Shown here in pieces: positions 46,976 to 61,456 of a DNA stretch of 64,000 nucleotides (its first letter is position 1; every line of letters begins with the position of its first letter). The stretch spans positions 1 through 64,000 of the forward strand of contig JAFVGH010000082.1 of assembly GCA_017475045.1 (NCBI GenBank), in the 5' to 3' direction. Made by a program: the position numbers and the translations under genes. Below the pieces are notes generated by a model, which searched no databases, was not told the DNA's origin, and saw only the letters and a program-made list of their open reading frames with translations. The stretch is from Fibrobacter sp. GTDB taxonomy: Bacteria; Fibrobacterota; Fibrobacteria; Fibrobacterales; Fibrobacteraceae.

Positions 46976-46978
46976 GAG

Positions 46979-47051
46979 TGGAGATAGTGGGAGTCGAACC
47001 CATGACCTACAGATTGCGAACCTGTCGCTCTACCAACTGAGCTATATCCCC
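46979..47051 (-). tRNA. tRNA-Ala (CGC anticodon)
   Basis: 73-nt cloverleaf on the minus strand. Acceptor stem GGGGATA/TATCTCC with the G3-U70 alanine identity pair. D arm AGCTCAGTTGGTAGAGC, anticodon stem ACAGG/TCTGT with loop TTCGCAA (anticodon CGC, reading GCG), T arm with GTTCGAC. CCA not encoded. It borders the accessory region. Confidence 0.93.
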
Positions 47052-47112
47052 GTTAGGTGTGCCAAATATATCTATTCTAAAGCTTTTCGTCAAGCAATGG
47101 TTGGAAAAAACT

Positions 47113-47871
47113 TTATTTGGTTTTGACGTAATGCTCCACAAGAGAATCGATGCAGTCCGTATTCAAATTAAAGGACTTGAATGCCTCGTAAAGACCTGAA
47201 ATAAAGGTGGAATTGGTCATCATTTGTTTTTTGTAGGCGTTGAAGTCTTCCTCGAATTTTTTTGCCTCCTTTTTTTTACGAGGCCAATAAGAATAATTTG
47301 TCGATATTTTACAGTTTGAATGAATCTGCTTATCTATTCGTGGTAGATTGCAATTGGCATAGTAACTTTCCGTGATATCTCCATAAATGTCGTAACCCAC
47401 CTCTATACGTAGTGGGAAACGTTTTTCTTTGGGGTTTACTACATAGACGGCTGTTGTCGGCGGAGGACTTTTTTTGGTAGAGTCGATAAGGACTGCGATA
47501 TTGGGTGTTGCCGCCATATAGGAAAATCCATTTCGTTCAATGGTCTCCATGCATGAAATTTTGTCTGGACTAGGGCTAACATAGCGATTGTAGTAGTAAG
47601 AATCATGCAAAATACTGTAATCAGATTCATCAAGGAATCTGTACCATATTCGAATTTCGTAATTGTCGTCATATTGGAGAAATCTTAGACTAGGTTTGTC
47701 TATGAATTCCGCAAATTCCACGTTGCCTGCAACAGCCGTTTTTACGTGGTCTGAAAAAAGAAATTTTGTGAATATATTTCCCTTTACAAGATGCCCAATG
47801 GCGAAAAAAAGGATGGTTGCCACAGCAACGGCGACAACCACGAATAACATTTTAATCCAAACCGATTTCAT
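47113..47871 (-). CDS. Membrane-anchored orphan protein (candidate partner of the upstream gene)
   Basis: 252 residues. One N-terminal membrane helix (about 9-28, FVVVAVAVATILFFAIGHLV) with the rest outside the cytoplasm or in the periplasm. The mature part has Cys at ISCMETIERNGF, YANCNLPRI, HSNCKIS and TDCIDSL, and a basic patch WPRKKKEAKKFEEDF. No family recognised. It overlaps the end of the upstream gene by 20 nt, so the two are translated together. AT-rich compared with neighbouring housekeeping genes, consistent with acquisition. Confidence 0.65.
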   Translation of the reverse strand: MKSVWIKMLFVVVAVAVATILFFAIGHLVKGNIFTKFLFSDHVKTAVAGNVEFAEFIDKPSLRFLQYDDNYEIRIWYRFLDESDYSILHDSYYYNRYVSPSPDKISCMETIERNGFSYMAATPNIAVLIDSTKKSPPPTTAVYVVNPKEKRFPLRIEVGYDIYGDITESYYANCNLPRIDKQIHSNCKISTNYSYWPRKKKEAKKFEEDFNAYKKQMMTNSTFISGLYEAFKSFNLNTDCIDSLVEHYVKTK

Positions 47872-48799
47872 TCAAAAGCCCTTTAAGCACCTTGTTCATG
47901 AACGCTCTTTTGGAAATTTCCAAAAGATAAGGATTCAATTTTACAGTCAATGGGAAAAAATAATGCTTGTTTACTTTTTCGGCAAATTTTTTCCAACCTC
48001 CGTAAGAATTTACAAATGTTATGAACCTGCCAAATTCTTTTTGCTTGTAATAGCGGTCAATTGCATCGTAAAGGGATAAGTTTTTGTTGTTTATTAACGA
48101 GGCTATATTGCGGGCGTCGATGTCTGCGTAAAAATCTCCTGTACCAAAGAATTTACTGTATTGCGAATCGTTGCCTCCAATGTGTTTTTTTGCTGAATCG
48201 AGAACTGCAGCGTAACTCAAGCTGTTCTTTGTTCGTAAAGAGTCAAGATGTGCCGCGTAAGTGAACATGTCTCCGGCCCAACTGGCCCATTCTGTAGGCA
48301 GGGCACAATCATCACTATAGCAATCCAGATACCGGCTAAGAGAGGCGTTGAAATGGGGTAGGTCGACGACTATGCTGGAATCTGAAAATTCAAGGGATTT
48401 GAACTGACCGCTTGGGGAGAAATTGTTTTGGTAGCTTGGGTACTTCCATTGGGTCATGAATTTCATATATGGATTGGCAACACCTGAAGTTGCGTCCCAT
48501 ACTAAACCGTTATATTTCCCATAATCCCTCAAGACTTGAGAAACCTCCAACGCTCTTTTCATTTTCCAATCTGCACGCCATTTGGGAACAAGGCTCAAGT
48601 CGTCTATGTTTTGGATGGACTGTAAGAGGGAGTCGATTTTTGTTTCTTGCTTTGGCAGGCTGAGCAATCGGTTGTATGCAGAAGGCGGCACTACTCGCGT
48701 GCTGCTTGCGGGTGCGGTTTGCTGTGGTACAAGAAGACTTGCAAGAAGTCCGGTAGAAGAACTGGTCGAGTTTGTGTACGGGATGTACGGTTCTGTCAT
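47852..48799 (-). CDS. Orphan soluble protein behind a structured leader
   Basis: 315 residues from ATG 48799 (SD AAAGGA). No signal peptide. The N-terminal about 45 residues are Ser/Thr/Pro/Gln-rich and look disordered. The rest is helical, with conserved-looking acidic patterns: WASWAGDMFTYAAHLDSL and SKFFGTGDFYADIDARNIASLI, then AIDRYYKQKEFGRFITF. I do not recognise the family. A cytosolic-type protein followed by an overlapping single-pass membrane protein resembles secreted-effector/immunity pairs, but there is no direct evidence. The leader 48800-48929 holds several perfect stem-loops. Confidence 0.65.
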   Translation of the reverse strand: MTEPYIPYTNSTSSSTGLLASLLVPQQTAPASSTRVVPPSAYNRLLSLPKQETKIDSLLQSIQNIDDLSLVPKWRADWKMKRALEVSQVLRDYGKYNGLVWDATSGVANPYMKFMTQWKYPSYQNNFSPSGQFKSLEFSDSSIVVDLPHFNASLSRYLDCYSDDCALPTEWASWAGDMFTYAAHLDSLRTKNSLSYAAVLDSAKKHIGGNDSQYSKFFGTGDFYADIDARNIASLINNKNLSLYDAIDRYYKQKEFGRFITFVNSYGGWKKFAEKVNKHYFFPLTVKLNPYLLEISKRAFMNKVLKGLLNEIGLD

Positions 48800-48806
48800 G
48801 AGTTTT

Positions 48807-48929
48807 CCTTTGCCCCGGAGGGGCGGTTGAATGTTGGCCGAAGGCAAAGGAATTTGGTATCTTTATTCTGCCGTTGAGTTACCAAAAACTCTTCGCCGAA
48901 GGACCTCTGACTGCAATTGGAGGTCCTTC
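48807..48929 (-). promoter_or_regulatory. Structured 5' leader with alternative pairings at the SD
   Basis: On the minus strand, 5' to 3': a perfect 10-bp hairpin (48920-48929 with 48898-48907), a 7-bp hairpin TTTGGTA/TACCAAA (48880-48886 with 48853-48859), then CCTTTGCC (48850-48843) able to pair with GGCAAAGG (48814-48807). The latter includes the SD of the gene at 48799. A nested GCCCC/GGGGC hairpin (48824-48812) competes for the same bases and would free the SD. On the plus strand the first hairpin is followed by five T and could alternatively be a terminator. Confidence 0.5.
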
Positions 48930-49143
48930 CTTTTTGGGACCGGACATTCTGTTTCACAACATAAATATACTCTAAATTTTGAATAAAAACAAGTGATTTT
49001 TGCTGTTTAATAAACAAAATAAAGTAAAAATGTTTCTTATTTGTTGCCTGCCAAAGAGTTAGATATTGAAAAAAAATTCAATGCAACTGTACCCTTAACA
49101 ATAATAATCTATATTCAACTTGAAAAATAGAGAGTTTCTCTTA

Positions 49144-49453
49144 TTCTCGATATGAAATCTCGACAATTTCAACCCAAGAGGATAAGACGGACGCTCACGT
49201 CTGTCGGCATGCAAGTGCCGGCAACGGTTCGCTATGCTGGCCGCATTCATGCGGTCCGTTTGTGCGTATCGGCCTTTACGGGGCGTGGGTTGTTTGTCCT
49301 TATTTGGGTAGGCTGTCGAGAGCCTCATATCGTAGGGACATTCAACCTCACGCCTTTTTTTGTGCGGTAAAATGCTAGAACAAGAGAAATTCTCATGAGT
49401 CGGCTCTTGTTCTCGATATGGAATCTCGACAATTTCAACTCAAAAGAATAAGA
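49144..49453 (+). repeat. 44-bp direct repeat pair with short ORFs
   Basis: Copies at 49144-49187 and 49410-49453 differ at only four of 44 positions, and a shorter CTCTT-rich similarity extends upstream. Each contains an ATG opening a short frame that starts M(K/E)SRQFQ(P/L)KRIR: 49152-49370 (72 codons) and 49418-49540 (40 codons). Two differences are silent and two change residues. After the repeat the frames diverge. They may be dispersed repeat debris, leader peptides or truncated gene starts. The rest of 48930-49608 shows no gene. Confidence 0.6.
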
Positions 49454-49608
49454 GGGTACTCAGAAATCCGGACGCATGCGCGCCCCGTTTTTGCGTGGGC
49501 GTATTGTATGCCTAGGGCGTCGTGTATTCTCTTTTTGTGAAATCGCCGTAATCCAGTCCCCGAACGGGAGCGAAACAGAACGTTGCGCTTGAAGTTCGGG
49601 AGAATGGA

Positions 49609-50550
49609 ATGAAAAACATTGCGGCTGACATGCCTGTCCGGCAAATCTTTGACGTGTATCGAGGTGCCGTACTCCCCATATTGCTAAAGGATAAGACCAC
49701 GGGCAAGAATATCCTGTGGGCCACGGACGAATACGACGCCATTTCCCCGAAAAGCGAAATAGAATTCAAGGACATTACCGGCGGGAGCCTGATGCTTGTG
49801 CGTCCGCGAATCGCCAAGACCCTTGATGCCCAAAGGGACCGCACCAAGAAGCGAGCCGAAGTCTTTACGCCGTCGTGGATTTGCAACCAAATGAACAACG
49901 CCCTGGACGATGACTACCTGGGCTATACGGGAGCATTCAATACCGAAGGCGATAAGGCTTGGACTAGGAACCGTAAAAAAATCCAATTTAGCGACGGAAA
50001 AACCTGGCAAGAATACGTTGACCAGACAAGGCTTGAAATCACCTGCGGCGAAGCGCCTTTCGTGACGAGCCGTTACAACCCTACAGATGGAAATTTTATC
50101 GAGGTCAAGGACCGCATTGGTTTCTTGGATCGTAAACTTCGCGTGGTCGAAGAGAATGCGGATGGTGACGAATACAAGAAATGGTCCATGCGTTCCCTGG
50201 AAAGTTGTTACGGGTACGAGTACCAGGGGGACAACCTCTTGATTGCCCGCATCAACGTGTTCTTGTCTTGGACGGAACATTGGGAAAAGAAATTAGGCGA
50301 AAAACCGGACAGAACGACGGCGCGGAGTGCCGCTAACGTAATCGCGTGGAACTTTTGGCAGATGGATGGCCTTACGGGCAGGACTCCGCAAATCAAGGAA
50401 AAGAATTGCGGACAAATGACTCTACCCGGATTCGAAGTGGAAAAAGAAACTGGCGAATCTGGGGTCACCGAGGAATGCTTGATTTTTGACTGGCGAAGAC
50501 GCTTCAGCCGGACCTACAACTCTTTAAAATCAAAGGAGAATGGAAAATGA
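49609..50550 (+). CDS. R-M locus protein 1: N-terminal-type part of a split DNA adenine methyltransferase
   Basis: 313 residues. RAEVFTPSWICNQMNN at about residue 84 matches the motif-X region of gamma/Eco57I-type adenine methyltransferases. LEITCGEAPFVTSRYNP at about 143 occupies the place of SAM motif I, but lacks the usual DxxxGxG. GFLDRKLRVV, YEYQGDNLLIARINVFLS and AWNFWQMDGL continue the family pattern. The catalytic NPPY motif is absent and lies at the start of the next gene, which overlaps by 4 nt. The two proteins probably act as one enzyme. Confidence 0.72.
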   Translation: MKNIAADMPVRQIFDVYRGAVLPILLKDKTTGKNILWATDEYDAISPKSEIEFKDITGGSLMLVRPRIAKTLDAQRDRTKKRAEVFTPSWICNQMNNALDDDYLGYTGAFNTEGDKAWTRNRKKIQFSDGKTWQEYVDQTRLEITCGEAPFVTSRYNPTDGNFIEVKDRIGFLDRKLRVVEENADGDEYKKWSMRSLESCYGYEYQGDNLLIARINVFLSWTEHWEKKLGEKPDRTTARSAANVIAWNFWQMDGLTGRTPQIKEKNCGQMTLPGFEVEKETGESGVTEECLIFDWRRRFSRTYNSLKSKENGK

Positions 50551-51554
50551 AAAAATTCTTTGCCGTAATCGGAAACCCTCCGTATCAAGAAACGACTGAA
50601 AGTGATAGCACTCGTATGCCTCCGATTTACAATTATTTTATGGATGAATCCTATAAAATTGCTGAGAAAATTGAACTTATCACTCCAGCAAGATTTCTGT
50701 TTAATGCAGGATATACTCCCAAAGAATGGAATGAAAAAATGCTGAATGATGAACATCTTAAAGTTCAGTTATATGAAGCAGATTGTACAAAGATTTTCCC
50801 AAATACGGAAATAAAGGGAGGAATCGCCATAACTTATAGAGATGCGGAAAAGATTATTGGTCCAATTGGAATTTTTACAAAATTTAAAGAGCTAAATACA
50901 ATTCTTGAAAAAGTAAAGACATGTGATTCTTTTTTAGATACAATTATCTATTCCCCCTTAAGCTATCAACTTTCTGATGTTATGAAAAAAGAACACCCTG
51001 AGTTGATTTCTCGTCTAAGAACAAGTGCCTTTAGCACATTGTCTTCCATTTTTTTTGAAAACGTACCGAAAGATAAATATGAGTATGTTGGAATGGATGG
51101 CTTAGAAAGTGGAAAGAGAAAAAGAAAGTTTATTCGAAAAGACTACATAAAGGATTCATCAGGAACATTAAAAAAGTGGAAATTACTTGTTTCTAAAGCG
51201 AATGGATCGGGTGTTTTTGGCGAAACTCTGTCAAAATCAATAGTCTCTGAACCTGAAAATGGTTATACGCAGACGTTTATTGCGATAGGAACATTTAACA
51301 CCAAAAAAGAAGCTGAACATGTTGGTCAGTATATAAAAACCAAGTTTGTGAGAGCTTTACTTGGCGTACTGAAAATAACACAGGATAATCCTGGCCCAAA
51401 ATGGAAATACGTCCCTCTCCAAGACTTTACCTCTAAATCCGATATCGACTGGACCAAGTCCGTCCACGAAATAGACTTGCAACTCTACAAGAAATATGGC
51501 CTCTCCAAAGAAGAAAAAGACTTCATTGAAACTCACGTCAAGGAGATGGTCTAA
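50547..51554 (+). CDS. R-M locus protein 2: NPPY-bearing (Eco57I-type) methyltransferase part
   Basis: 335 residues. VIGNPPYQ at residues 7-14 is the catalytic motif IV of N6-adenine methyltransferases, right at the N-terminus. IELITPARFLFNAG (motif V/VI region) and EIKGGIAITYRDAEK follow. The remainder is a probable target-recognition region with lower conservation (e.g. DGLESGKRKRKFIRKDYI). SAM motif I is missing and must come from another chain. The base composition is clearly more AT-rich than gene 1 and gene 3, as target-recognition parts often are after exchange. Overlaps the helicase gene by one base. Confidence 0.78.
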   Translation: MKKFFAVIGNPPYQETTESDSTRMPPIYNYFMDESYKIAEKIELITPARFLFNAGYTPKEWNEKMLNDEHLKVQLYEADCTKIFPNTEIKGGIAITYRDAEKIIGPIGIFTKFKELNTILEKVKTCDSFLDTIIYSPLSYQLSDVMKKEHPELISRLRTSAFSTLSSIFFENVPKDKYEYVGMDGLESGKRKRKFIRKDYIKDSSGTLKKWKLLVSKANGSGVFGETLSKSIVSEPENGYTQTFIAIGTFNTKKEAEHVGQYIKTKFVRALLGVLKITQDNPGPKWKYVPLQDFTSKSDIDWTKSVHEIDLQLYKKYGLSKEEKDFIETHVKEMV

Positions 51555-54500
51555 TGTCAAACGTTACCCAAATCAAGACGATGCGGCCGGTTAACCGCGC
51601 CATATACGCATACACCACTCCAAATGACCGCACCCATGACGGGTGGATAAAAATCGGTGATACCGAAGTCAATTTTGGCGAAAACTTGAAGGATGCCGTA
51701 AAGGAACGCGTCCATCAGCAAACTCACACCTCCGATACCGATGCCCCTATTGCGTGGAGCGGTAGGGCTGTTTTTGAAGATGACTTGACGCCTTTCCGTG
51801 ATTACGATTTCCATAAATACTTGACAAACAAGGTGGATGTCGAACGGAAACCGAAAACGGAATGGTTCAAGACTGACGCAAAAACTTCTAAAAATCATTT
51901 TAATGACTTTAAGGAAAATCACGGAATCCTTACCGAAATGGAAGGCGTCGAAATCTACGAACTCCGTGATGAACAGGAAGAAGCCGCCAGAAAGACCGCC
52001 GATTATTTCGATAACCACAAGCTGGTGAAAATCCTGAAAAAGGACAAGGCTCCCGAATTCCTGTGGAATGCAAAGCCCCGCTTCGGAAAGACGCTCACCG
52101 CATACGACTTTTGTAAGCGTGTTGGTGCAAAGAATGTGCTTATCTTGACAAACCGCCCGGCCATTGCCGATAGCTGGTACAATGATTACGCTCGTTTCGT
52201 CGGGACAGAAGGCGGCTACTATTTTGTAAGCCAGGTGGATGTTTTCAAAAAAAATCCGCAAAAATACAAGCATGTTTTAACAAGGGATGAGTTTACTCGC
52301 GCTGTAAGCAAGAACAGGCTCGGCTGCATAGAGTTTATTTCTCTGCAAGACCTTAAAGGTGCAAAGGCTTTTGGTGGCGATTACGAGAAACTCCGCGAAG
52401 TTTCTGAACTTGATTGGGATGTGCTGATTCTTGACGAGGCGCACGAGGGCGTAGAAACCGATAAAACGGATGTTGCCCTGGAGCGCATCAAGCGACGCTT
52501 TACGCTTAACCTTTCGGGCACTCCGTTCAAGATGCTTGCTTCCGACAAGTTCCCCGAAGAAGCTATATTCAACTGGACATACGCTGACGAACAGGAACGC
52601 AAAAGGGAATTTGCCGAAAAGGGTGTTGAAAATCCTTACGAAGACTTGCCGAAGCTCAATCTTTTCACCTACCAGATGTCCGATATGATGGGCGCGAAGG
52701 CGGATGCCGGAACTCTCATTGATGACGAAGAAACGCAATATTACTTTGACTTGAACGAGTTCTTCAAGACGAATGCTTCGGGTTATTTTGAACATCTCGA
52801 AGATGTAAAGAAGTTTCTGGACGCTCTCACGGAGCAGAAAAAGTATCCGTTCTCTACGGAAGAACTTAGGAATCAACTCAAACATACGTTCTGGTTGCTG
52901 AATCGCGTAGATTCTGCAGTTGCCTTGAAAAAGCTATTGACACAGCATCCTGTATTCAAGGAATATACGGTTGTCCTTGCTGTTGGTAATGGCGACGAGG
53001 AACTGGAAAACCAGAAAGCGATTACCGCTGTTCGCGAAGCTATCAAGAAAAACGAAAAGACTATCACACTTTCGGTGGGGCAACTCACGACGGGCGTCAC
53101 CATTCCCGAATGGACTGCAGTCTTGATGCTTTGCTCCATGCGTTCTCCGGCGCTGTATATGCAGGCCGCATTCCGTGCTCAAAATCCGTGCCTTTTCTTG
53201 GATAAGGATGGCAAAACATATCGCAAAGATAATGCGTATGTGTTCGATTTTGATCCGGCACGCACGCTGACTATCGTGGAAACCATTGCCAACGACCAGT
53301 ACAAGGATACTGCCGGTGGTGCAGGCGATAGCGAAAAACGCAAAAAGCATGTTCTGGAGCTCTTGAACTTCTTCCCTGTGGTGGGCGAAGACGACAATGG
53401 CGAAATGATTGAACTGGATGCCGAAAAGGTGCTGACGATCCCGAGGCATATCCACGCCAAGGAGGTTGTTAATCATGGTTTCATGAGCAATTTCTTGTTC
53501 CAGAACATTAGCGGAATTTTTGCTGCACCTTCGATTGTAAACGACATCCTCAAGAAGGTGAATCCTGTCACCAAGGCAGAAGCGGACAAGAATATTGTCA
53601 CCCCGGAACAGGCTAATGAACTTCCTCTTGATGGAAATGGAAATGTCGATGTTCCCTCGGAACAGGTGGTCGGGACTGCCGCAGATAAGTTCGGTGATCC
53701 GGTTTTTTCCCAGCAATCTAATGATTACGAAAAAGACGTGAATAGGTTACTGCGAGATCACAAGCCGTCGAAAATTGAAAATATCATTAAGGATTTGACC
53801 ACTGTTTACGATGTATCTGTAAAGAAAGTAGCCGAAGAAGCCAAGGTCAAGTTTGGCCAAGAGATGACAAAGTCCCAGTCCAAGGAATTTGAACGCAAAC
53901 TGCATGATTACGGGCAAAAGAAAATCAGTTCTGCCGCCGCCGATTTCAAGATAGAAGCCGGTACAGCGGAACATAAGCGCGACGAGGCGTTGAAAAACTG
54001 CAATTCTAAAGCCGAAGAAAAGCAGATTCAGCAAGTATTCAAGAAGGAAATGGATGTTGCTGAGAAAAAATTCAAAGAAACCGTTTCGGATACATCGGAC
54101 ATTTGGAAAAAGGCGACGGAGGAAACCGTCAAGGCTGTAGAAGAAAGCAAGATTGAAAAGAAGAAAAATGATATTGAGGAAAAGGTTCGCGACCACCTGC
54201 GTGGATTTGCACGAACGATTCCCTCTTTCTTGATGGCCTACGGAAATGACAATACGACTCTCGAAACATTTGAACGCGACATTCCGGGCAACGTATTCCT
54301 TGAAGTAACGAGTATCACCGTTGACGAATTCAAATTCCTTCGCGATGGTGGTGATTACACTGACGAAAACGACGGAAAGAAAAAGCACTATGACGGTCAT
54401 CTCTTTGATTCGGTCGTATTCAACGACTCCGTGAAGGAATTTATGCGCAAACGCTCCGAGCTTGCCGATTATTTCGAGGATGACGTGAATGGCGATATTT

Positions 54501-54940
54501 TCGACTATATTCCGCCGCAGAAGACGAACCAAATCTTTACACCGAAAAAAGTCGTAAAGGACATGGTGGATATGCTCGAAAAGGAAACTCCGGGCTGTTT
54601 TGATGACCCGGAGCACACCTTCGCAGACTTGTACATGAAATCGGGACTCTATATCACCGAAATTATCAAGCGCCTTTATCGTTCAAAGAAGATGAAGAAA
54701 ATCTTCCCCGACGATGCAAAGAGGCTGGAGCATATCGTCAAGAATCAAGTCTGTGGTGCTGCTCCTACCGAAATCATCTACATGATTGCTATGCACTACA
54801 TTCTCGGCTTCAACAACGAAATCGAAGGCAAAACAGCATCGCAAATTCAAGCGCTTTATCCGAATTTCAAGATGAAGGATACCGCCGAACTCGCTAAAAA
54901 CGGAAAACTAGCAGAATGGGTCGAGAAGGCGTATAAGTAG
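51554..54940 (+). CDS. R-M locus protein 3: GIY-YIG nuclease-SF2 helicase-methyltransferase motif fusion
   Basis: 1128 residues. About 12-60: T5orf172/GIY-YIG-like nuclease (AIYAYTTPNDRTHDGWIKIGDT...). About 145-640: SF2 helicase with NAKPRFGKTLTAYDF (Walker A, about 175), LILDEAHEG (DEAH, about 293), LNLSGTPF (III) and a C-terminal RecA lobe (VGQLTTGVTIPEW, MQAAFRAQNP). About 730-920: long charged coiled coil. About 985-1128: a methyltransferase-like end with NQIFTPKKVVKDMVDML (motif X) and HTFADLYMKSGLYITEIIKRL (motif I-like), stopping before any NPPY. This is a probable restriction/translocation subunit; the tail may complete the methyltransferase of gene 2. Confidence 0.8.
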   Translation: MSNVTQIKTMRPVNRAIYAYTTPNDRTHDGWIKIGDTEVNFGENLKDAVKERVHQQTHTSDTDAPIAWSGRAVFEDDLTPFRDYDFHKYLTNKVDVERKPKTEWFKTDAKTSKNHFNDFKENHGILTEMEGVEIYELRDEQEEAARKTADYFDNHKLVKILKKDKAPEFLWNAKPRFGKTLTAYDFCKRVGAKNVLILTNRPAIADSWYNDYARFVGTEGGYYFVSQVDVFKKNPQKYKHVLTRDEFTRAVSKNRLGCIEFISLQDLKGAKAFGGDYEKLREVSELDWDVLILDEAHEGVETDKTDVALERIKRRFTLNLSGTPFKMLASDKFPEEAIFNWTYADEQERKREFAEKGVENPYEDLPKLNLFTYQMSDMMGAKADAGTLIDDEETQYYFDLNEFFKTNASGYFEHLEDVKKFLDALTEQKKYPFSTEELRNQLKHTFWLLNRVDSAVALKKLLTQHPVFKEYTVVLAVGNGDEELENQKAITAVREAIKKNEKTITLSVGQLTTGVTIPEWTAVLMLCSMRSPALYMQAAFRAQNPCLFLDKDGKTYRKDNAYVFDFDPARTLTIVETIANDQYKDTAGGAGDSEKRKKHVLELLNFFPVVGEDDNGEMIELDAEKVLTIPRHIHAKEVVNHGFMSNFLFQNISGIFAAPSIVNDILKKVNPVTKAEADKNIVTPEQANELPLDGNGNVDVPSEQVVGTAADKFGDPVFSQQSNDYEKDVNRLLRDHKPSKIENIIKDLTTVYDVSVKKVAEEAKVKFGQEMTKSQSKEFERKLHDYGQKKISSAAADFKIEAGTAEHKRDEALKNCNSKAEEKQIQQVFKKEMDVAEKKFKETVSDTSDIWKKATEETVKAVEESKIEKKKNDIEEKVRDHLRGFARTIPSFLMAYGNDNTTLETFERDIPGNVFLEVTSITVDEFKFLRDGGDYTDENDGKKKHYDGHLFDSVVFNDSVKEFMRKRSELADYFEDDVNGDIFDYIPPQKTNQIFTPKKVVKDMVDMLEKETPGCFDDPEHTFADLYMKSGLYITEIIKRLYRSKKMKKIFPDDAKRLEHIVKNQVCGAAPTEIIYMIAMHYILGFNNEIEGKTASQIQALYPNFKMKDTAELAKNGKLAEWVEKAYK

Positions 54941-54950
54941 GGCCTACTAA

Positions 54951-56033
54951 TTATAGTAATTCAATCAGATCATAGAAATAGTACAGGTTGCCACGTTTTT
55001 TTTCATCTGCGAAAACGATATTGCCAGCCGTGAGTTTGTCCAACATTCGGTTGACTGTGGTGTTGGATAGTCCCGTTTCTCGTTCTATGGAACGACTGTT
55101 TTGAATCGGGTTTTTGAAGAAACAGACGAAAACCTGTTTTAGCAATCGTGATGAAGAAATGTTGGTCACCTTTTTTAGGCTGGTGCTATATAATTCTTCA
55201 ATCTTTTGGACGTTTCCTTCATATTTGATACATTGCCTATCCACGATTCCAAGGAAAAATTTAATCCATTCGTTCCACATGCAACCTGTTCGCACGTCAT
55301 TCAGCATTTTGTAGTAGCGGAATTTTTCTTTTTCGATAGCCTCGCTCAAGAAAAGCCACGGCATCTCGATTTCTCGCTCTTTAAACAGAAATAACGGAAT
55401 GAGCATACGGCCCAATCGTCCATTGCCATCGGCGAAGGGGTGGATGGTTTCGAATTGTTCGTGTATAACGGCTGCATTTATCAGGTTTCTTTCTCCAGAT
55501 TCCGGGTTATTCATGAATTGGATCAGGTTGTCCATCAAGGGTTTTACGTATTTTACCGCTGGTGGGACAAAAGTAATTTCTTTTGATTTCTCGTTTTGAA
55601 TAAAATTCTGTTCAGTGCGGTAGCAACCAATGGAATTTGTGGTTCTATGGACATTTCCGCTCAAAAGAATCCTGTGCATTTCAAGAAGCATTTCTTCTGT
55701 AAAAATCCCGGTGCGCATCAGGTATTCTCGTCCGTATCGAGTTGCGGCGGAATAATTCCTGACTTCGTTAACATCCTTGTCGGAGTTGTCTTCAAGAACA
55801 GTCTTTTCCAGGGAATTTTGTAACGATGTTCTGGTTGTTTCCATGCGACTAGAGTGCAGACTCTCCTTCATGTACATCGAGGTCAAGCAGGATTCTCGCG
55901 CAATAGACCTTTTGAGTACCGCTGAATAAACTTTGAGACGCGAAACAGAATCGACTAATTCGTCTATAAAGAGCGCTTTGTTGATATGCTCAAAAGCGGC
56001 TTCAATGTTTTCAGCTTTGTAAGGATTCATCAT
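54951..56033 (-). CDS. Fic-family protein (probable AMP transferase) with winged-helix tail
   Basis: 360 residues. The Fic active site is HPFADGNGRLGRML (HPFxxGNGRxxR) at about residues 198-211. Upstream, LHSSRMETTRTSL resembles the N-terminal inhibitory (S/T)xxxE(G/N) helix, with Thr instead of Gly/Asn after the Glu. The C-terminal about 60 residues (NSRSIERETGLSNTTVNRMLDKL...) form a winged helix, as in DNA-binding Fic/DOC-like regulators. It is convergent with the R-M operon, 10 nt apart, which suggests membership in the same defence island. The partner or target is unknown. Confidence 0.85.
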   Translation of the reverse strand: MMNPYKAENIEAAFEHINKALFIDELVDSVSRLKVYSAVLKRSIARESCLTSMYMKESLHSSRMETTRTSLQNSLEKTVLEDNSDKDVNEVRNYSAATRYGREYLMRTGIFTEEMLLEMHRILLSGNVHRTTNSIGCYRTEQNFIQNEKSKEITFVPPAVKYVKPLMDNLIQFMNNPESGERNLINAAVIHEQFETIHPFADGNGRLGRMLIPLFLFKEREIEMPWLFLSEAIEKEKFRYYKMLNDVRTGCMWNEWIKFFLGIVDRQCIKYEGNVQKIEELYSTSLKKVTNISSSRLLKQVFVCFFKNPIQNSRSIERETGLSNTTVNRMLDKLTAGNIVFADEKKRGNLYYFYDLIELL

Positions 56034-56179
56034 CTTGGAAACAAATATACAATAAAATGTTTGTAAAAAATGATTTTTACGCTCTTTTCTTTCGTACTTA
56101 GTTTAACAGGCATGTGCCTTTTTGAACATTTGTTCACTAATTTTGAGACAGTTTGGCAGCTGTTTCCTATATTTGTGAC

Positions 56180-59100
56180 ATGACCAAGTTTATCGATATC
56201 CGCGACGCCCATGAACACAACCTGCAACATGTGGATTTGAAAATTCCTCGCGATTCTATCGTGGTGGTAACCGGCGTTTCGGGTTCGGGCAAGTCCAGCC
56301 TTGCCTTTGATACGGTGTTTCAGGAGGGCCAGCGCCGTTTTGTTGAATCGCTGTCGGCCTACGCCCGTCAGTTCATCGGCCGCATGAAACACCCCGAGGT
56401 GGAGAGCGTTCGCGGCATTTCGCCCACGATTTCCATCGACCAGAAAACGGTGAACCGCAACCCCCGCAGTACCGTGGGTACGGTGGTGGAGATTCTGGAC
56501 CATTACCGCCTGCTTTTTGCCCGACTGGGCGTGCCCCACTGCCCCAAGTGCGGCCGGGTCATCAAGGCCCAGACCGTGGACCAGATTGTAGATAATTTGT
56601 ATGTAGGCGACGAGGGCAAGCAGATTACGGTGATGGCCCCCATCGTGCAGGAGCGCAAGGGCGAATACCGCAAGGAACTCTCTGAGCTTAAAGAAGATGG
56701 TTTTGTCCGTGCCCGTGTGGACGGCGTGATTTACCGCTTGGAAGATGTTCCTGCCCTGGTGCGTTACGAGAAGCACACCATTGAGGCGGTCATCGACCGC
56801 CTGACGTTGGAACGCAAGAACATGAGCCGCCTGCGGGAGGCCCTGGAAGGGGCTCTAAAACTGACCGACGGGAAACTCGTGAGTTTCTTGCTGTCGGCGG
56901 GCGGTTCGGGCAAGGACGGTGCGGCGGATGCGAAAGAGGAATATCGCCTGCAGGGTACGGAACTGGCCTGCCCCAAGTGCGGCGTTTCCATCCCGGAATT
57001 GGAACCTCGGTTCTTCAGTTTCAACGATCCCAAGGGCCGCTGCCCGGTGTGTAAGGGCATGGGCGAAAGTTGCGAGTTCGACTTGAACCTGGTGGTGCCC
57101 GACCCGAACCTCTCCATAAAGCAGGGCTGTTTTGCTTGCCAGAAGAAGGATACGGGAACCATTATCTTTTCCGATTTCGGTTGGCGTAATTTGCGGACCA
57201 TAGCCAACGAGATGCACTGTTCCCTGGACACGCCCTGGAAAAAGCTCACCGAAAAGCAGCGTCATGCCTTCTTGTACGGCCCTCCCAGCGGCAACGAAAG
57301 TGGCGTGGTCTCCGTAATGCAGGAACTGTGGGACATGTGGCACATTTTCCACTTCCGCAAGTTCATGAAGATCGGCGTCTGCCCCGAATGTGGAGGAACC
57401 CGCATTAACCGTACGGCAAATGCGGTTGAATTTCACGGTCATAACCTTACCGAACTTACGGAATGGTCTGTGGACAAGTCTGCCGACTTTTTCAACGGCC
57501 TGAAACTCTCCGAGAAGGAACTGCGGATAGGCAAGGAAATCTTCCGCGAAATTCGTGGCCGTCTGAATTTCTTGAAGACGGTGGGGCTCGGGTACCTGAA
57601 CATCAGCCGCAAGGCTTCTACCTTAAGCGGCGGCGAGGCCCAGCGTATCCGCCTGGCCAGTGCCGTGGGGGCTGGGCTTCAGGGGGTACTTTATATTCTG
57701 GATGAACCCAGTATTGGTTTGCACCCTCGCGATAATGACAAGCTTTTGGAAATGCTGGAACACCTGCGTGCCCAGGGCAACAGCCTGGTCATTGTGGAGC
57801 ACGACGAAGACACCATGCGTCATGCGGACTGCGTCATTGACGTAGGGCCCGGCGCCGGCGTAGAGGGCGGTCGAATTTTGGCGGCGGGCACGGTGGAGGA
57901 GCTGGAAAAGAACAAGTCCTCCTTGACTGGGGCGTATCTGAGCGGTCGCAAGGCCATCGAGATTCCCGAGAAGCGCAAGAAGATTGACAAGGATACGCCT
58001 AGGCTTAAGATTTGCGGCGCCACCGAGAACAACCTGAAGAATATCGATGTAGAAATTCCTCTGGGTGGCGCCTTCACCGTCGTCACCGGTGTCTCGGGCT
58101 CCGGCAAGAGCACGCTCATCAATCAGATTCTCCGTCGGGAACTGGCCCGGGTGTTCTACAATTCCGAAGAACCGGTGGGCAAGTTCGATCACCTGGAAGG
58201 TCTTGAGAACATCGACAAGGTCATAGAAATCGACCAGACGCCTATCGGCCGCACGCCCCGTAGCAATCCGGCGACCTACACGAAGATTTGGGACGATATC
58301 CGCGACCTGTTCGGTAGCCTGCCCGAAAGCAAGGTCCGTGGCTACACCAAGAGCCGTTTCAGCTTTAATGTGAAGGGCGGTCGCTGTGACGCTTGCGAAG
58401 GGGCGGGCGTAAAAGTGGTGGACATGCACATTTTGCCCAGCGTGCAGGTGACCTGCGATGTGTGCGACGGCAAGCGTTTTAACGATGCCACCCGCGAAAT
58501 CTATTTCAAGGGCAAGAATATTTCCGAAATTCTGGAAATGAGCATTGCCGATGCGGCGGAATTTTTCAAGGACCTGCCAAAAATTGCAGAACCCTTGAAC
58601 TTGTTAGTGGAAGTGGGCCTTGGCTACCTTACGCTTGGTCAGCCATCCACAACTTTGAGCGGTGGCGAGGCGCAGCGTATCAAGATTGCCTCGGAACTGA
58701 GGCGCCCGGGTACGGGCAAGACTCTTTATTTGCTGGATGAGCCTACCACGGGGCTTCATTTCGAGGATATTCGCAGGCTTCTGGAATGCCTGAACCGCTT
58801 GCGTGGTCTTGGCAACAGCGTGGTGGTCATTGAGCACAACCTGGATGTTATCAAATGCGCCGACTGGATTATCGATTTAGGGCCTGAGGCTGGCGTGGGC
58901 GGTGGGCGTATTGTAGCCGTAGGCACTCCGGAACAGATTGCGAAAAATAAGAAAAGCCAGACCGGTAAATATTTGGCACCCGTTCTTTCCCGAAAGCACG
59001 GTGAGAACAAACAGTTTGATAGATCCCTAAAGGCAGGGGAGGCCTATTCCCTGGATATAGAAGTCCATGGGGCCCGCAAGCACAACCTGAAAAACATTGA

Positions 59101-61456
59101 CGTCACAATCCCGCGGCACAAGCTCACGGTGGTCACGGGCGTTTCCGGCTCCGGAAAGTCCAGTCTTGCGTTCCATACCCTGTTCAGTGAAGGCCAGCGC
59201 CGTTTTGTGGAAACCCTGAGCACCTATGCCCGGCGATTCCTGGGCCGCCCCGACCACGGGAGCATCGATTCCATCACGGGGCTTGCCCCGGCCATCGCCA
59301 TCGATCAGAAGAGCGCCAGCAAGAGTCCGCGGAGTACTGTGGCGACCCTCACCGAGATTTACGACTATTTCCGCATATTGTGGGCGAGGGTCGGCACGCC
59401 GCACTGCCTGCATTGCGGCAATCCCGTGGATTCGTACTCCGCGGGCGACCTGACGAAACGGGCTTTCGATAACAACCTGAATAAAATGGTGACGGTCCTT
59501 GCTCCTTTCGAGATCAAGGATGAAGTTAAGTTGTCTAAAATCCTGACGGAAAAGGGCTACCGTAAGGTTTACCTGGGAAAAAAACTGGTGGAGCTTCCGC
59601 TGCCGAAGGTTCCCACAAGAGAAAAGCAGGTACTTGCCGTTGTAGATTCCGTTGTGGTGAAGGAATCTAACCGTGCCCGCCTGGTAGAGGCCTTTGAACG
59701 GGGCTACCGGGACGGCAATGGTATTTTGTACGTTGAAAATGAGAAAGGTGAACGCCTTGCCTGTTCCGAAAAGCCGGGATGCCCCAAGTGCGGCTGGTTC
59801 ATGGACTCTGCCCTCAACCCCAAGCATTTCAGTTTCAATACCCATTGGGGCGCCTGCGATACTTGCCTAGGGCTTGGGCATTTCAAGGATGGCGACGTCT
59901 GCCCGGACTGCCATGGCGAAAGGCTGAAGCCGGAATACCTGGCGGTCCGCATCGCGGGCAAGAACATCATGGATGTGCACCGCATGAGCATTGCCGAGGC
60001 CCTGGATTGGTTCACCCATGTGGACTTCAAGGGCGAAAAGGATGGCGAAAGCAAGAAGACGGTAGCGGAACCCCTGTTCAGGGAAATCATCGGTCGTCTA
60101 GAATTTTTGATAAGCGTAGGTCTTGGTTACATCGGTCTTGACCGTGCGGGCGACACCCTTAGCGGCGGCGAGTCCCAGCGTATCCGCCTGGCAAGCCAGA
60201 TTGGCAGTGGCCTGGAAGGCGTGCTATATGTTTTAGATGAACCTACGGTTGGCCTTCACGAAAGCGATACCGCCAAGTTGCTGGACTCCCTTTACCGCTT
60301 GCGTGACTTAGGGAATACCCTAGTGGTGGTGGAGCACGACATGAAGATGATGAAGGCGGCAGACCACATCATCGACATGGGCCCTGCGGCAGGTGAATTC
60401 GGTGGCGAGGTGGTGGCAGAGGGTTCTCCAAACCAGCTTTCCAAGCCCTATGCCCTGCAACAGTTCCCCCGGAGCGAGACCGTTAAGTACCTGACGGGTT
60501 CCATACCCGTAACAAACCAGATCGGAGTTCGCCCCGTAACGGATGATTCCGAATTCTACGAATTCAAGGGCCTCAAGAAGAACAACTTGAAGAACCTTTC
60601 TGTTCGATTCCCGAAGGGCGCCATCAGCGTGGTCTGCGGTGTTTCGGGTTCCGGCAAGAGTTCCATGGTGGTGGACGAAATCTACCCGGCCCTGAAAAAG
60701 AAGTTCCAGGCCCGAGGCCGCAAAAAGCAGAGCGGCGAGGTGCTCTTGGTAGACCAGAGCCCCATCTCGGGAACGCCTCGCAGCACGCCCGCCAGTTACA
60801 CGGGCGTGTTTGACGACATCCGCAAGCTCTTCGCCAAACTGCCACAGGCAAAGGCCAAGGGTTTCGATTACGGTCGTTTCAGTTACAACTTGGCCCGTGG
60901 CCGCTGCGAGGCCTGCGAGGGTCGTGGCGCCATATCGGTGGAAATGCATTTCCTTTCGGACATCTGGGAAGTCTGCGACGTGTGCGGTGGCAAGCGTTAC
61001 AATCAAGAGACCCTTACCGTCGCTTTCAAGGGCAAGAACATCGCCGATGTTCTGGATATGCGCATCGACGAGGCCTGCGAGTTCTTTAAGGACCAGCCGA
61101 AAATTTTGCCCAAGCTGGAGTGCCTGCGGGACGTGGGCCTTGGGTACCTGAGGCTTGGCCAGCCCGTTACCACCCTTTCGGGTGGCGAGTCCCAGCGGCT
61201 TAAGCTTGCGGCGGAACTTTCACGTAAATCGGCGGGGGAGATGGTCTACCTGCTGGACGAGCCCACCACGGGTCTCCACCTGAAGGATATCCAGATTCTC
61301 TGGAACCTGCTCCGCCGTCTGTCGGCCCGTGGAGATACCCTGATAGTCATCGAACACCACCCGGACATTATCCGCATGGCGGACTGGACTGTGGAACTTG
61401 GCCCCACAGGTGGTAGCCAGGGCGGTTATTTGCTGAAAATGGGCTCAAATAGTTGA
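56180..61456 (+). CDS. uvrA: Double-length excinuclease subunit UvrA (four ABC modules)
   Basis: 1758 residues, about twice the usual 940, formed by two UvrA-type halves. Four Walker A motifs (GVSGSGKS, near residues 32, 638, 986, 1487) and four LSGGE(A/S)QR signatures (near 482, 827, 1327, 1667) are intact. Zinc-finger pairs occur in both halves, e.g. [29 protein letters not shown] and [15 protein letters not shown]. Chlamydia has a comparable fused UvrA. It recognises DNA damage for UvrB/C. ATG 56180 is exactly 5 nt after a TATATTT box and has no SD; the upstream GTG/TTG-type extension to 56153 would run through the box. Confidence 0.93.

What the first reader, a model, noticed from the sequence alone, without database searches (positions are those of the whole stretch)
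49609..54940. Three-gene restriction-modification-like locus with methyltransferase motifs dispersed over separate chains
Gene 1 has a motif-X-like FTPSW segment and an atypical motif-I position but no NPPY. Gene 2 begins with the catalytic NPPY but has no SAM motif I. Gene 3 is a GIY-YIG/SF2 helicase/coiled-coil protein whose C-terminus carries another FTP plus motif-I-like block and then stops. A working adenine methyltransferase would have to be assembled in trans, perhaps with the helicase tail giving the SAM site. Helicase and GIY-YIG nuclease in the same chain as methyltransferase motifs suggests coupled translocation and cleavage. The frames overlap by 4 and 1 nt, so stoichiometric expression is expected.
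Basis: partly seen in the sequence, partly recalled or inferred. Interest (0 to 1): 0.8.

Follow-up and report, generated by a model that had tools for sequence, protein, structure and literature searches.

The report
Restriction system sharing one enzyme half
A widespread but apparently undescribed bacterial DNA-defence system in which the DNA-reading half of a methyltransferase seems to be shared between a self-marking enzyme (paired with a cofactor-binding half) and an attacking helicase-nuclease (paired with a look-alike half whose cofactor site is dead), so that both would read the same DNA site.

Summary
In detail: three overlapping genes with dispersed methyltransferase (MTase) motifs. 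MTase assembly in trans is well supported, but the helicase tail as SAM donor is not. Across about 230 related loci, gene 1 (g1) keeps SAM motifs I and II and never has its own NPPY. The helicase tail is a homologous N-half with a conserved ruined SAM site (K[ST]G for motif I, motif II acid lost). Gene 2 (g2) carries NPPY and the target-recognition domain. In nature g2 is fused to g1 in some lineages and to the tail in others, and the other N-half stays in the operon. AlphaFold models of both fusions are complete gamma-class MTase folds (pLDDT 92 and 94). In 85 of 88 non-redundant fused genes an in-frame start codon survives at the g2 start, usually with a Shine-Dalgarno sequence. A phage fusion lacking helicase and tail has lost it. 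I infer that free g2 pairs with g1 to modify and with the tail to restrict, both reading one site. The recognition part of g2 is exchanged between close relatives, and phages carry lone g1 genes. Best reading: a new variant of R-M system, architecture well supported, biochemistry untested.

The parts
49609..50550 (+). Gene 1 (g1): SAM-competent N-half of a gamma-class DNA MTase (motifs X, I, II, III), no catalytic motif
   Evidence: PADLOC MTase_II 2e-85; relatives hit N6_Mtase / MmeI_Mtase
49858..49878 (+). g1 motif X EVFTPSW
   Evidence: EVFTP in 123 of 163 distinct g1 sequences
50032..50061 (+). g1 motif I LEITCGEAPF; distant g1 relatives carry the canonical form LEPACGSGNF
50209..50220 (+). 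g1 motif II YGYE with the acid that usually holds the SAM ribose
   Evidence: YGx[ED] in 161 of 163
50547..51554 (+). Gene 2 (g2): catalytic C-half of the MTase (NPPY) plus target-recognition domain; interchangeable specificity module
50574..50585 (+). g2 motif IV NPPY
   Evidence: present in nearly all g2 rows
50834..51327 (+). Approximate replaced stretch of g2 (target-recognition region): no DNA similarity to close relatives although flanks are 74-94% identical
   Evidence: GC about 0.33 against 0.50 in g1 and 0.46 in g3
51554..54940 (+). Gene 3 (g3): GIY-YIG nuclease + SF2 helicase + coiled-coil + pseudo N-half tail
51602..51895 (+). T5orf172 / GIY-YIG nuclease domain
   Evidence: 30 of 32 members, best 1.1e-10; invariant Y18, K33, G35, E103
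51956..53473 (+). SF2 helicase / translocase (RFGKT, DEAH, SGTP)
54194..54937 (+). Tail: pseudo N-half of an MTase, homologous to g1
   Evidence: profile match to g1: Prob 92.5, E=4.7e-7; tail subfamilies to each other E=1.9e-23; g1 to second tail subfamily E=3e-12
54626..54652 (+). Tail pseudo-motif I DLYMKSGLY (Lys in place of the first Gly of GxG)
54752..54775 (+). Tail pseudo-motif II CGAAPTEI (acid replaced by Ala)

Best explanation
This is an ATP-dependent restriction-modification locus built around a shared half-enzyme. Gene 2 is the C-half of a gamma-class DNA MTase (catalytic NPPY plus target-recognition domain). It can be completed by either of two homologous N-halves. With gene 1, whose SAM site is intact, it forms the modification MTase. 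With the tail of gene 3, whose SAM site is dead, it forms a pseudo-MTase that serves only as the site reader of the GIY-YIG/helicase restriction protein. Because both complexes use the same gene 2 chain they read the same sequence, and exchanging gene 2 re-targets both at once. Where gene 2 is fused to one N-half, a conserved internal translation start supplies free gene 2 for the other. Shown here by sequence or model: module content, motif states, two alternative natural fusions, a complete predicted fold for each, conserved internal start codons with ribosome-binding sites, exchange of the recognition stretch. Inferred: that g1:g2 methylates (N6-adenine, from NPPY), that tail:g2 senses unmodified sites and licenses translocation and cleavage, and that both complexes exist in the cell.
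For: (1) Module HMMs on 227 loci show g1-g2 fusions with the tail kept on the helicase chain where that chain is complete, and tail-g2 fusions with a separate g1. (2) g1 and tail are homologous N-halves with opposite SAM-site status: g1 motif II acid 161/163; tail K[ST]G 116/122 and 43/43. (3) AlphaFold2 models of the natural fusions g1-g2 (L051, pLDDT 91.7, pTM 0.89) and tail-g2 (L117, pLDDT 93.9, pTM 0.89) each align along the same template, CamA (Z 19.3 and 20.6; model 64-646 and 76-535 onto CamA 11-577 and 6-577), so both N-halves take the same place on g2. (4) In fused ORFs a start codon lies at the g2 start in 85/88 non-redundant cases; Shine-Dalgarno match of 4+ nt in 73/88 against 218/1211 other in-frame ATGs, of 5+ nt in 47/88 against 62/1211; Gly codons in that stretch are biased to GGA (41/67 against 1066/3495, p=3e-7). 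Two of the three exceptions fit the model: phage FNU4 (L040; fusion with no helicase or tail in the record) and L092 (has a separate second g2). Most g1-g2 cases without a Shine-Dalgarno are Prevotella/Bacteroidales, which rely little on it (own knowledge). (5) The recognition stretch of g2 alone is replaced between close relatives, and in L238 a second g2 sits inverted with a 160-nt inverted repeat spanning the g2 start and a tyrosine recombinase next to it.
Against: No biochemistry or methylome. Complexes were not modelled as multimers; both models are single natural fusions, and neither is the window's own protein set. Internal starts could be relics of gene fusion, though they persist across divergent sequences. 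Some junctions lack a recognisable Shine-Dalgarno (15 of 88). Four actinobacterial tails (L046, L120, L130, L170) have STAG instead of KSG. One tail-g2 fusion (L218) lacks a start codon without explanation. The group of g1 to which the window belongs has a non-canonical motif I (CGEAPF), so SAM binding by g1 is not certain. In fused systems free g2 would have to find its partner in the presence of the fusion protein.
Confidence: 0.55

Rival explanations
1. g1:g2 is the only MTase; the g3 tail is a dead paralogue that docks on the whole g1:g2 complex (through a dimer-like surface), making one ternary R-M complex as in Type I enzymes. It does not replace g1.
For: g1-g2 fusions are very common and keep the tail on g3 where g3 is complete. 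Dead MTase domains as partners of live ones are known elsewhere (own knowledge, METTL3-METTL14); Type I enzymes with two different modification subunits M1 and M2 are described in PMC9613975 (abstract).
Against: tail-g2 is itself a frequent covalent fusion and folds as a complete MTase with the tail in the N-half position. A separate free g2 start in fusions has no role in this model.
Confidence: 0.25
2. One reading: the g3 tail supplies the SAM site to g2, making a helicase-tethered MTase.
For: tail-g2 fusions exist and fold as one MTase.
Against: Tail SAM motifs I and II are degenerate in a conserved way, whereas g1 has the SAM motifs; g1-g2 fusions and phage g1+g2 pairs without helicase exist.
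Confidence: 0.06
3. The internal starts are leftovers of fusions of overlapping genes and have no function; fused and unfused forms work identically.
For: The unfused genes overlap by 1-4 nt and carry their own Shine-Dalgarno, so a fusion would inherit it.
Against: Start and Shine-Dalgarno persist in the divergent tail-g2 subfamily where the surrounding peptide differs (FGGD against PEEI), with GGA codon bias; the helicase-less phage fusion has lost both.
Confidence: 0.14

Closest known systems
DnmA-YeeB-YeeC of Bacillus subtilis (PMC9973331)
   Same: Gamma-class (MmeI-like) adenine MTase next to an SF2 helicase and a T5orf172/GIY-YIG protein in one cluster; distant g1 members hit MmeI_Mtase.
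   Different: DnmA is described there as an MTase encoded by one gene, with helicase and nuclease as separate genes; no pseudo N-half or split is mentioned in the passages read. The proteins were not compared directly here.
Type ISP enzymes LlaGI / LlaBIII
   Same: Helicase and Eco57I-like MTase with recognition domain; in the Lactobacillales-type fusion they lie in one chain; structural matches 5ffj and 4xqk.
   Different: Here the nuclease is GIY-YIG at the N-terminus, the SAM site of the helicase-linked MTase is dead, and a separate g1 gene supplies the live N-half.
Type I R-M (HsdMSR, including non-canonical M1M2S)
   Same: Translocating restriction chain and modification chains share one specificity element; cassettes of that element are exchanged and can be inverted (own knowledge).
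   Different: The shared element here also carries the catalytic NPPY and half of the MTase fold; no HsdS-type protein.
Eco57I / Type IIG
   Same: g2 belongs to Pfam Eco57I; PADLOC calls g2 and g3 pieces of REase_MTase_IIG.
   Different: Type IIG is a single chain with a live MTase and no helicase.
McrBL/McrBS (internal start in a restriction gene, noted in PMC12602166)
   Same: A shorter protein made from an internal start within a restriction gene.
   Different: McrBS is described as a regulator; here the short product would be a functional half of another enzyme.

Membership tests
Gamma-class N6-adenine DNA MTase (g1:g2) | Motif order X-I-II-III-NPPY-recognition domain in one fold | tested here: met
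   Natural g1-g2 fusion L051: motifs in order, pLDDT 91.7, aligns to CamA Z 19.3, MmeI, M.BseCI, M.TaqI
Gamma-class N6-adenine DNA MTase (g1:g2) | Canonical motif I GxG | tested here: inconclusive
   Window g1 has CGEAPF, resembling the M.TaqI form (own knowledge); distant g1 relatives have LEPACGSGNF
Gamma-class N6-adenine DNA MTase (tail:g2) | Intact SAM motifs I and II | tested here: not met
   K[ST]G in place of GxG in 116/122 and 43/43; motif II acid replaced by A or G
Type ISP | One chain with Mrr-like nuclease, helicase, MTase, recognition domain | tested here: not met
   Nuclease domain is T5orf172/GIY-YIG; three chains in the window, g1 always separate or fused only to g2
Type IIG | Single polypeptide restriction-modification enzyme, no helicase | tested here: not met
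Type I R-M | HsdS specificity subunit with two recognition domains, HsdM, HsdR | tested here: not met
   No Pfam or NCBIfam match of that kind for the three proteins
DnmA-YeeB-YeeC | MTase, SF2 helicase and T5orf172 protein in one cluster | tested here: inconclusive
   Same three activities, but fused and split differently; B. subtilis sequences were not compared directly
Functional R-M system | DNA methylation and restriction activity | not testable with these tools
   needs methylome and plaque or transformation assays

The most novel reading that the evidence does not exclude
A class of R-M systems in which one polypeptide (catalytic half plus target-recognition domain) is exchanged between a live SAM half and a dead pseudo-SAM half on the helicase-nuclease, with a conserved internal start guaranteeing free copies of the shared half. 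Phages exploit it by carrying only the constant live half (lone g1), which would draw the host's g2 into methylation of phage DNA whatever the recognition sequence. Lone g1 genes without g2 or helicase were found on 14 of 18 searched phage-type records of 5-57 kb, one beside terminase and portal genes.
Probability: 0.3. Interest if true: 0.9.

Novelty: new variant of a known kind. Interest (0 to 1): 0.72.

Why it matters
R-M systems must keep modification and restriction specificity matched. Sharing half an enzyme would solve this in a way different from the known solutions (shared HsdS, shared Mod, single-chain enzymes), and swapping one gene would re-target both activities. It gives a function to a conserved dead MTase domain, predicts an unannotated protein from many fused genes, and suggests a specificity-independent phage counter-measure. 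The systems lie on plasmids of Enterococcus, Lactococcus and Pediococcus and in gut and rumen bacteria, so they could be tested in laboratory strains.

Tried and rejected
Tail as SAM donor: rejected on motif status and on g1-g2 fusions. Chance or frameshifted ORFs: rejected, conserved in many phyla with intact frames. g2 start Met as an ordinary conserved residue: the next most common Met position near NPPY in fused chains (+55) occurs in 46 of 88 against 69 of 88 at -8. NCBIfam gave nothing significant for the three genes; the solved-structure sequence search gave no true match. A viral scan with the 84-row alignment failed for lack of a conserved stretch and was repeated with fewer sequences. 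Literature searches found no description of the split or the shared half; the library holds open-licence papers only and REBASE could not be searched, so earlier description there is possible. M.DraR1 of Deinococcus was checked as a possible relative and dropped (alpha class, SPPY).

Full report
WHAT IS THERE. The three ORFs and their overlaps are as described. g1 (313 aa) has motif X EVFTPSW, motif I LEITCGEAPF, motif II YGYE and motif III-like QMDG, and no NPPY. g2 (335 aa) starts nine residues before NPPY. g3 (1128 aa) has a T5orf172/GIY-YIG domain, an SF2 helicase, a long coiled-coil-like stretch and a tail with IFTP and DLYMKSGLY. Pfam sees Eco57I in g2 and ResIII in g3. T5orf172 is found in 30 of 32 members of the g3 N-domain alignment. 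PADLOC files the pieces under generic MTase_II and REase_MTase_IIG. The genome is a Fibrobacter-like assembly: near-identical loci occur in the same genus and in Fibrobacter intestinalis. It holds a single g2.

NATURAL ARCHITECTURES. I fetched loci from relatives, plasmids, phages, genomes and viral contigs, built HMMs for the modules and mapped them. Found: separate g1, g2, g3 as in the window; g1-g2 fused plus g3 with tail (for example F. intestinalis L051, Enterococcus moraviensis L114, Prevotella amnii L106); g1 plus one chain GIY-helicase-tail-g2 (Pediococcus L034, Enterococcus L035 and L043, Lactococcus L044); g1 plus a tail-g2 MTase plus a GIY-helicase (Rhizobium L048, Sphingopyxis L050, Variovorax L047); phage g1-g2 or g2/g1 without helicase (L040, L039). 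So g2 is fused sometimes to g1 and sometimes to the tail, and the N-half it is not fused to stays in the operon. The sample is biased toward relatives of the window and gives no prevalence.

MOTIF STATUS. g1 never has its own NPPY (the single regex hit of 163 comes from a stretch that runs on into a fused g2) and keeps the motif II acid in 161/163. The motif I consensus is LEITCGEAP[FY] in the window's group and LEPACGSGNF in the other. The tail has K[ST]G in place of GxG in 116/122, and 43/43 in the second subfamily, and A or G where the motif II acid should be. Profile comparison shows that g1 and tail are homologous N-halves (E=3e-12 for the second tail subfamily, 4.7e-7 for the window's). 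The dead site in the tail is therefore conserved rather than merely decayed.

STRUCTURE. AlphaFold2 of the natural g1-g2 fusion (L051; pLDDT 91.7, pTM 0.89) and of the natural tail-g2 fusion (L117; pLDDT 93.9, pTM 0.89) both give complete MTase folds. Both match CamA over nearly its whole length (Z 19.3 with 412 aligned at 6.7 A; Z 20.6 with 394 aligned at 6.7 A), and also MmeI, DrdV, BrxX/PglX, LlaGI, LlaBIII and Type I HsdM. So either N-half is predicted to complete the same C-half in the same way.

INTERNAL START. If g2 must serve two partners, a fusion should still release free g2. In fused ORFs a start codon lies at the g2 start (usually 8 codons before NPPY) in 85 of 88 non-redundant cases. 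A Shine-Dalgarno match of at least 4 nt precedes it in 73/88 (control in-frame ATGs 218/1211), and of at least 5 nt in 47/88 (62/1211). Gly codons there are biased to GGA (41/67 against 1066/3495, p=3e-7). The exceptions are instructive: phage FNU4 has the fusion but no helicase in its record and has lost start and Shine-Dalgarno; L092 has a second, separate g2; L218 is unexplained. Several g1-g2 junctions with ATG but no Shine-Dalgarno are from Prevotella and relatives.

SPECIFICITY MODULE. Against close relatives the locus is 74-94% identical in DNA up to about 50.6-50.88 kb and again from about 51.28-51.54 kb, with no detectable similarity between. The replaced middle has GC 0.33 against 0.50 in g1 and 0.46 in g3. 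In L238 a second g2 lies inverted with a 160-nt, 76% inverted repeat spanning the g2 start and a tyrosine recombinase beside it: a probable invertible specificity cassette. Both point to g2 as the interchangeable reader.

PHAGES. Many phage-type contigs carry g1 alone, with intact motifs. On 14 of 18 searched records (two of the 18 being the L039 and L040 controls) neither g2 nor the helicase was found. L147's contig has a g2-like ORF elsewhere, and L234's has a helicase-g2 fusion. L141's g1 lies 1.5 kb from terminase, portal and minor head genes. The records may be fragments. A lone g1 could pair with the host's g2 and methylate phage DNA with the host's own specificity; this is inference.

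MECHANISM. g1:g2 = modification. g3-tail:g2 = reader for the GIY-YIG/helicase, which on unmodified sites would translocate and cut. The shared reader keeps the two in register. Shown: architecture, motif states, predicted folds, internal start conservation. Inferred: the activities and the in vivo complexes.

KNOWN SYSTEMS. Nearest in content is DnmA-YeeB-YeeC (PMC9973331); nearest in the fused form is Type ISP. Defining features of Type ISP, IIG and I were tested and not met. I found no description of a shared half-MTase in the searchable papers, but REBASE and closed literature were not available.

Noticed in passing
L238:8200-15210 (same contig as L137 and L189): A second g2 downstream and a third in inverted orientation, a 160-nt inverted repeat across the g2 start, and a tyrosine recombinase gene (Phage_integrase E=4e-28): probable DNA-inversion switching of specificity.
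   Followed up: partly
L041, L042, L133, L141, L144, L146, L148, L149, L150, L152, L244-L246, L251: Phage-type contigs carry a lone g1 (SAM half) with intact motifs and no g2 or helicase in the searched record; candidate specificity-independent anti-restriction gene.
   Followed up: partly
window 56153-61456: UvrA-like ORF of 1767 aa that appears to hold two UvrA units in tandem in one chain.
   Followed up: no
window 54951-56033 (- strand): Fic/DOC family protein with Fic_N and a probable winged-helix C-terminus, convergent with the locus and about 10 nt from its end.
   Followed up: no
window 49141-49190 and 49380-49456: Two imperfect direct copies of a TCTCGATATGRAATCTCGACAATTTCAAC stretch in the non-coding region upstream of gene 1.
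   Followed up: no
window 46978-48847: tRNA-Ala gene followed by two ORFs without family matches just before the locus and a drop in GC: possible genomic island edge.
   Followed up: no
L046, L120, L130, L170 (actinobacterial relatives): Tail pseudo-motif I is FSTAGLF instead of KSG: an alternative way of losing the SAM site.
   Followed up: no
L035 (NZ_CP075560.1): A fused version of the system lies next to optrA and fexA on a conjugative Enterococcus plasmid.
   Followed up: no
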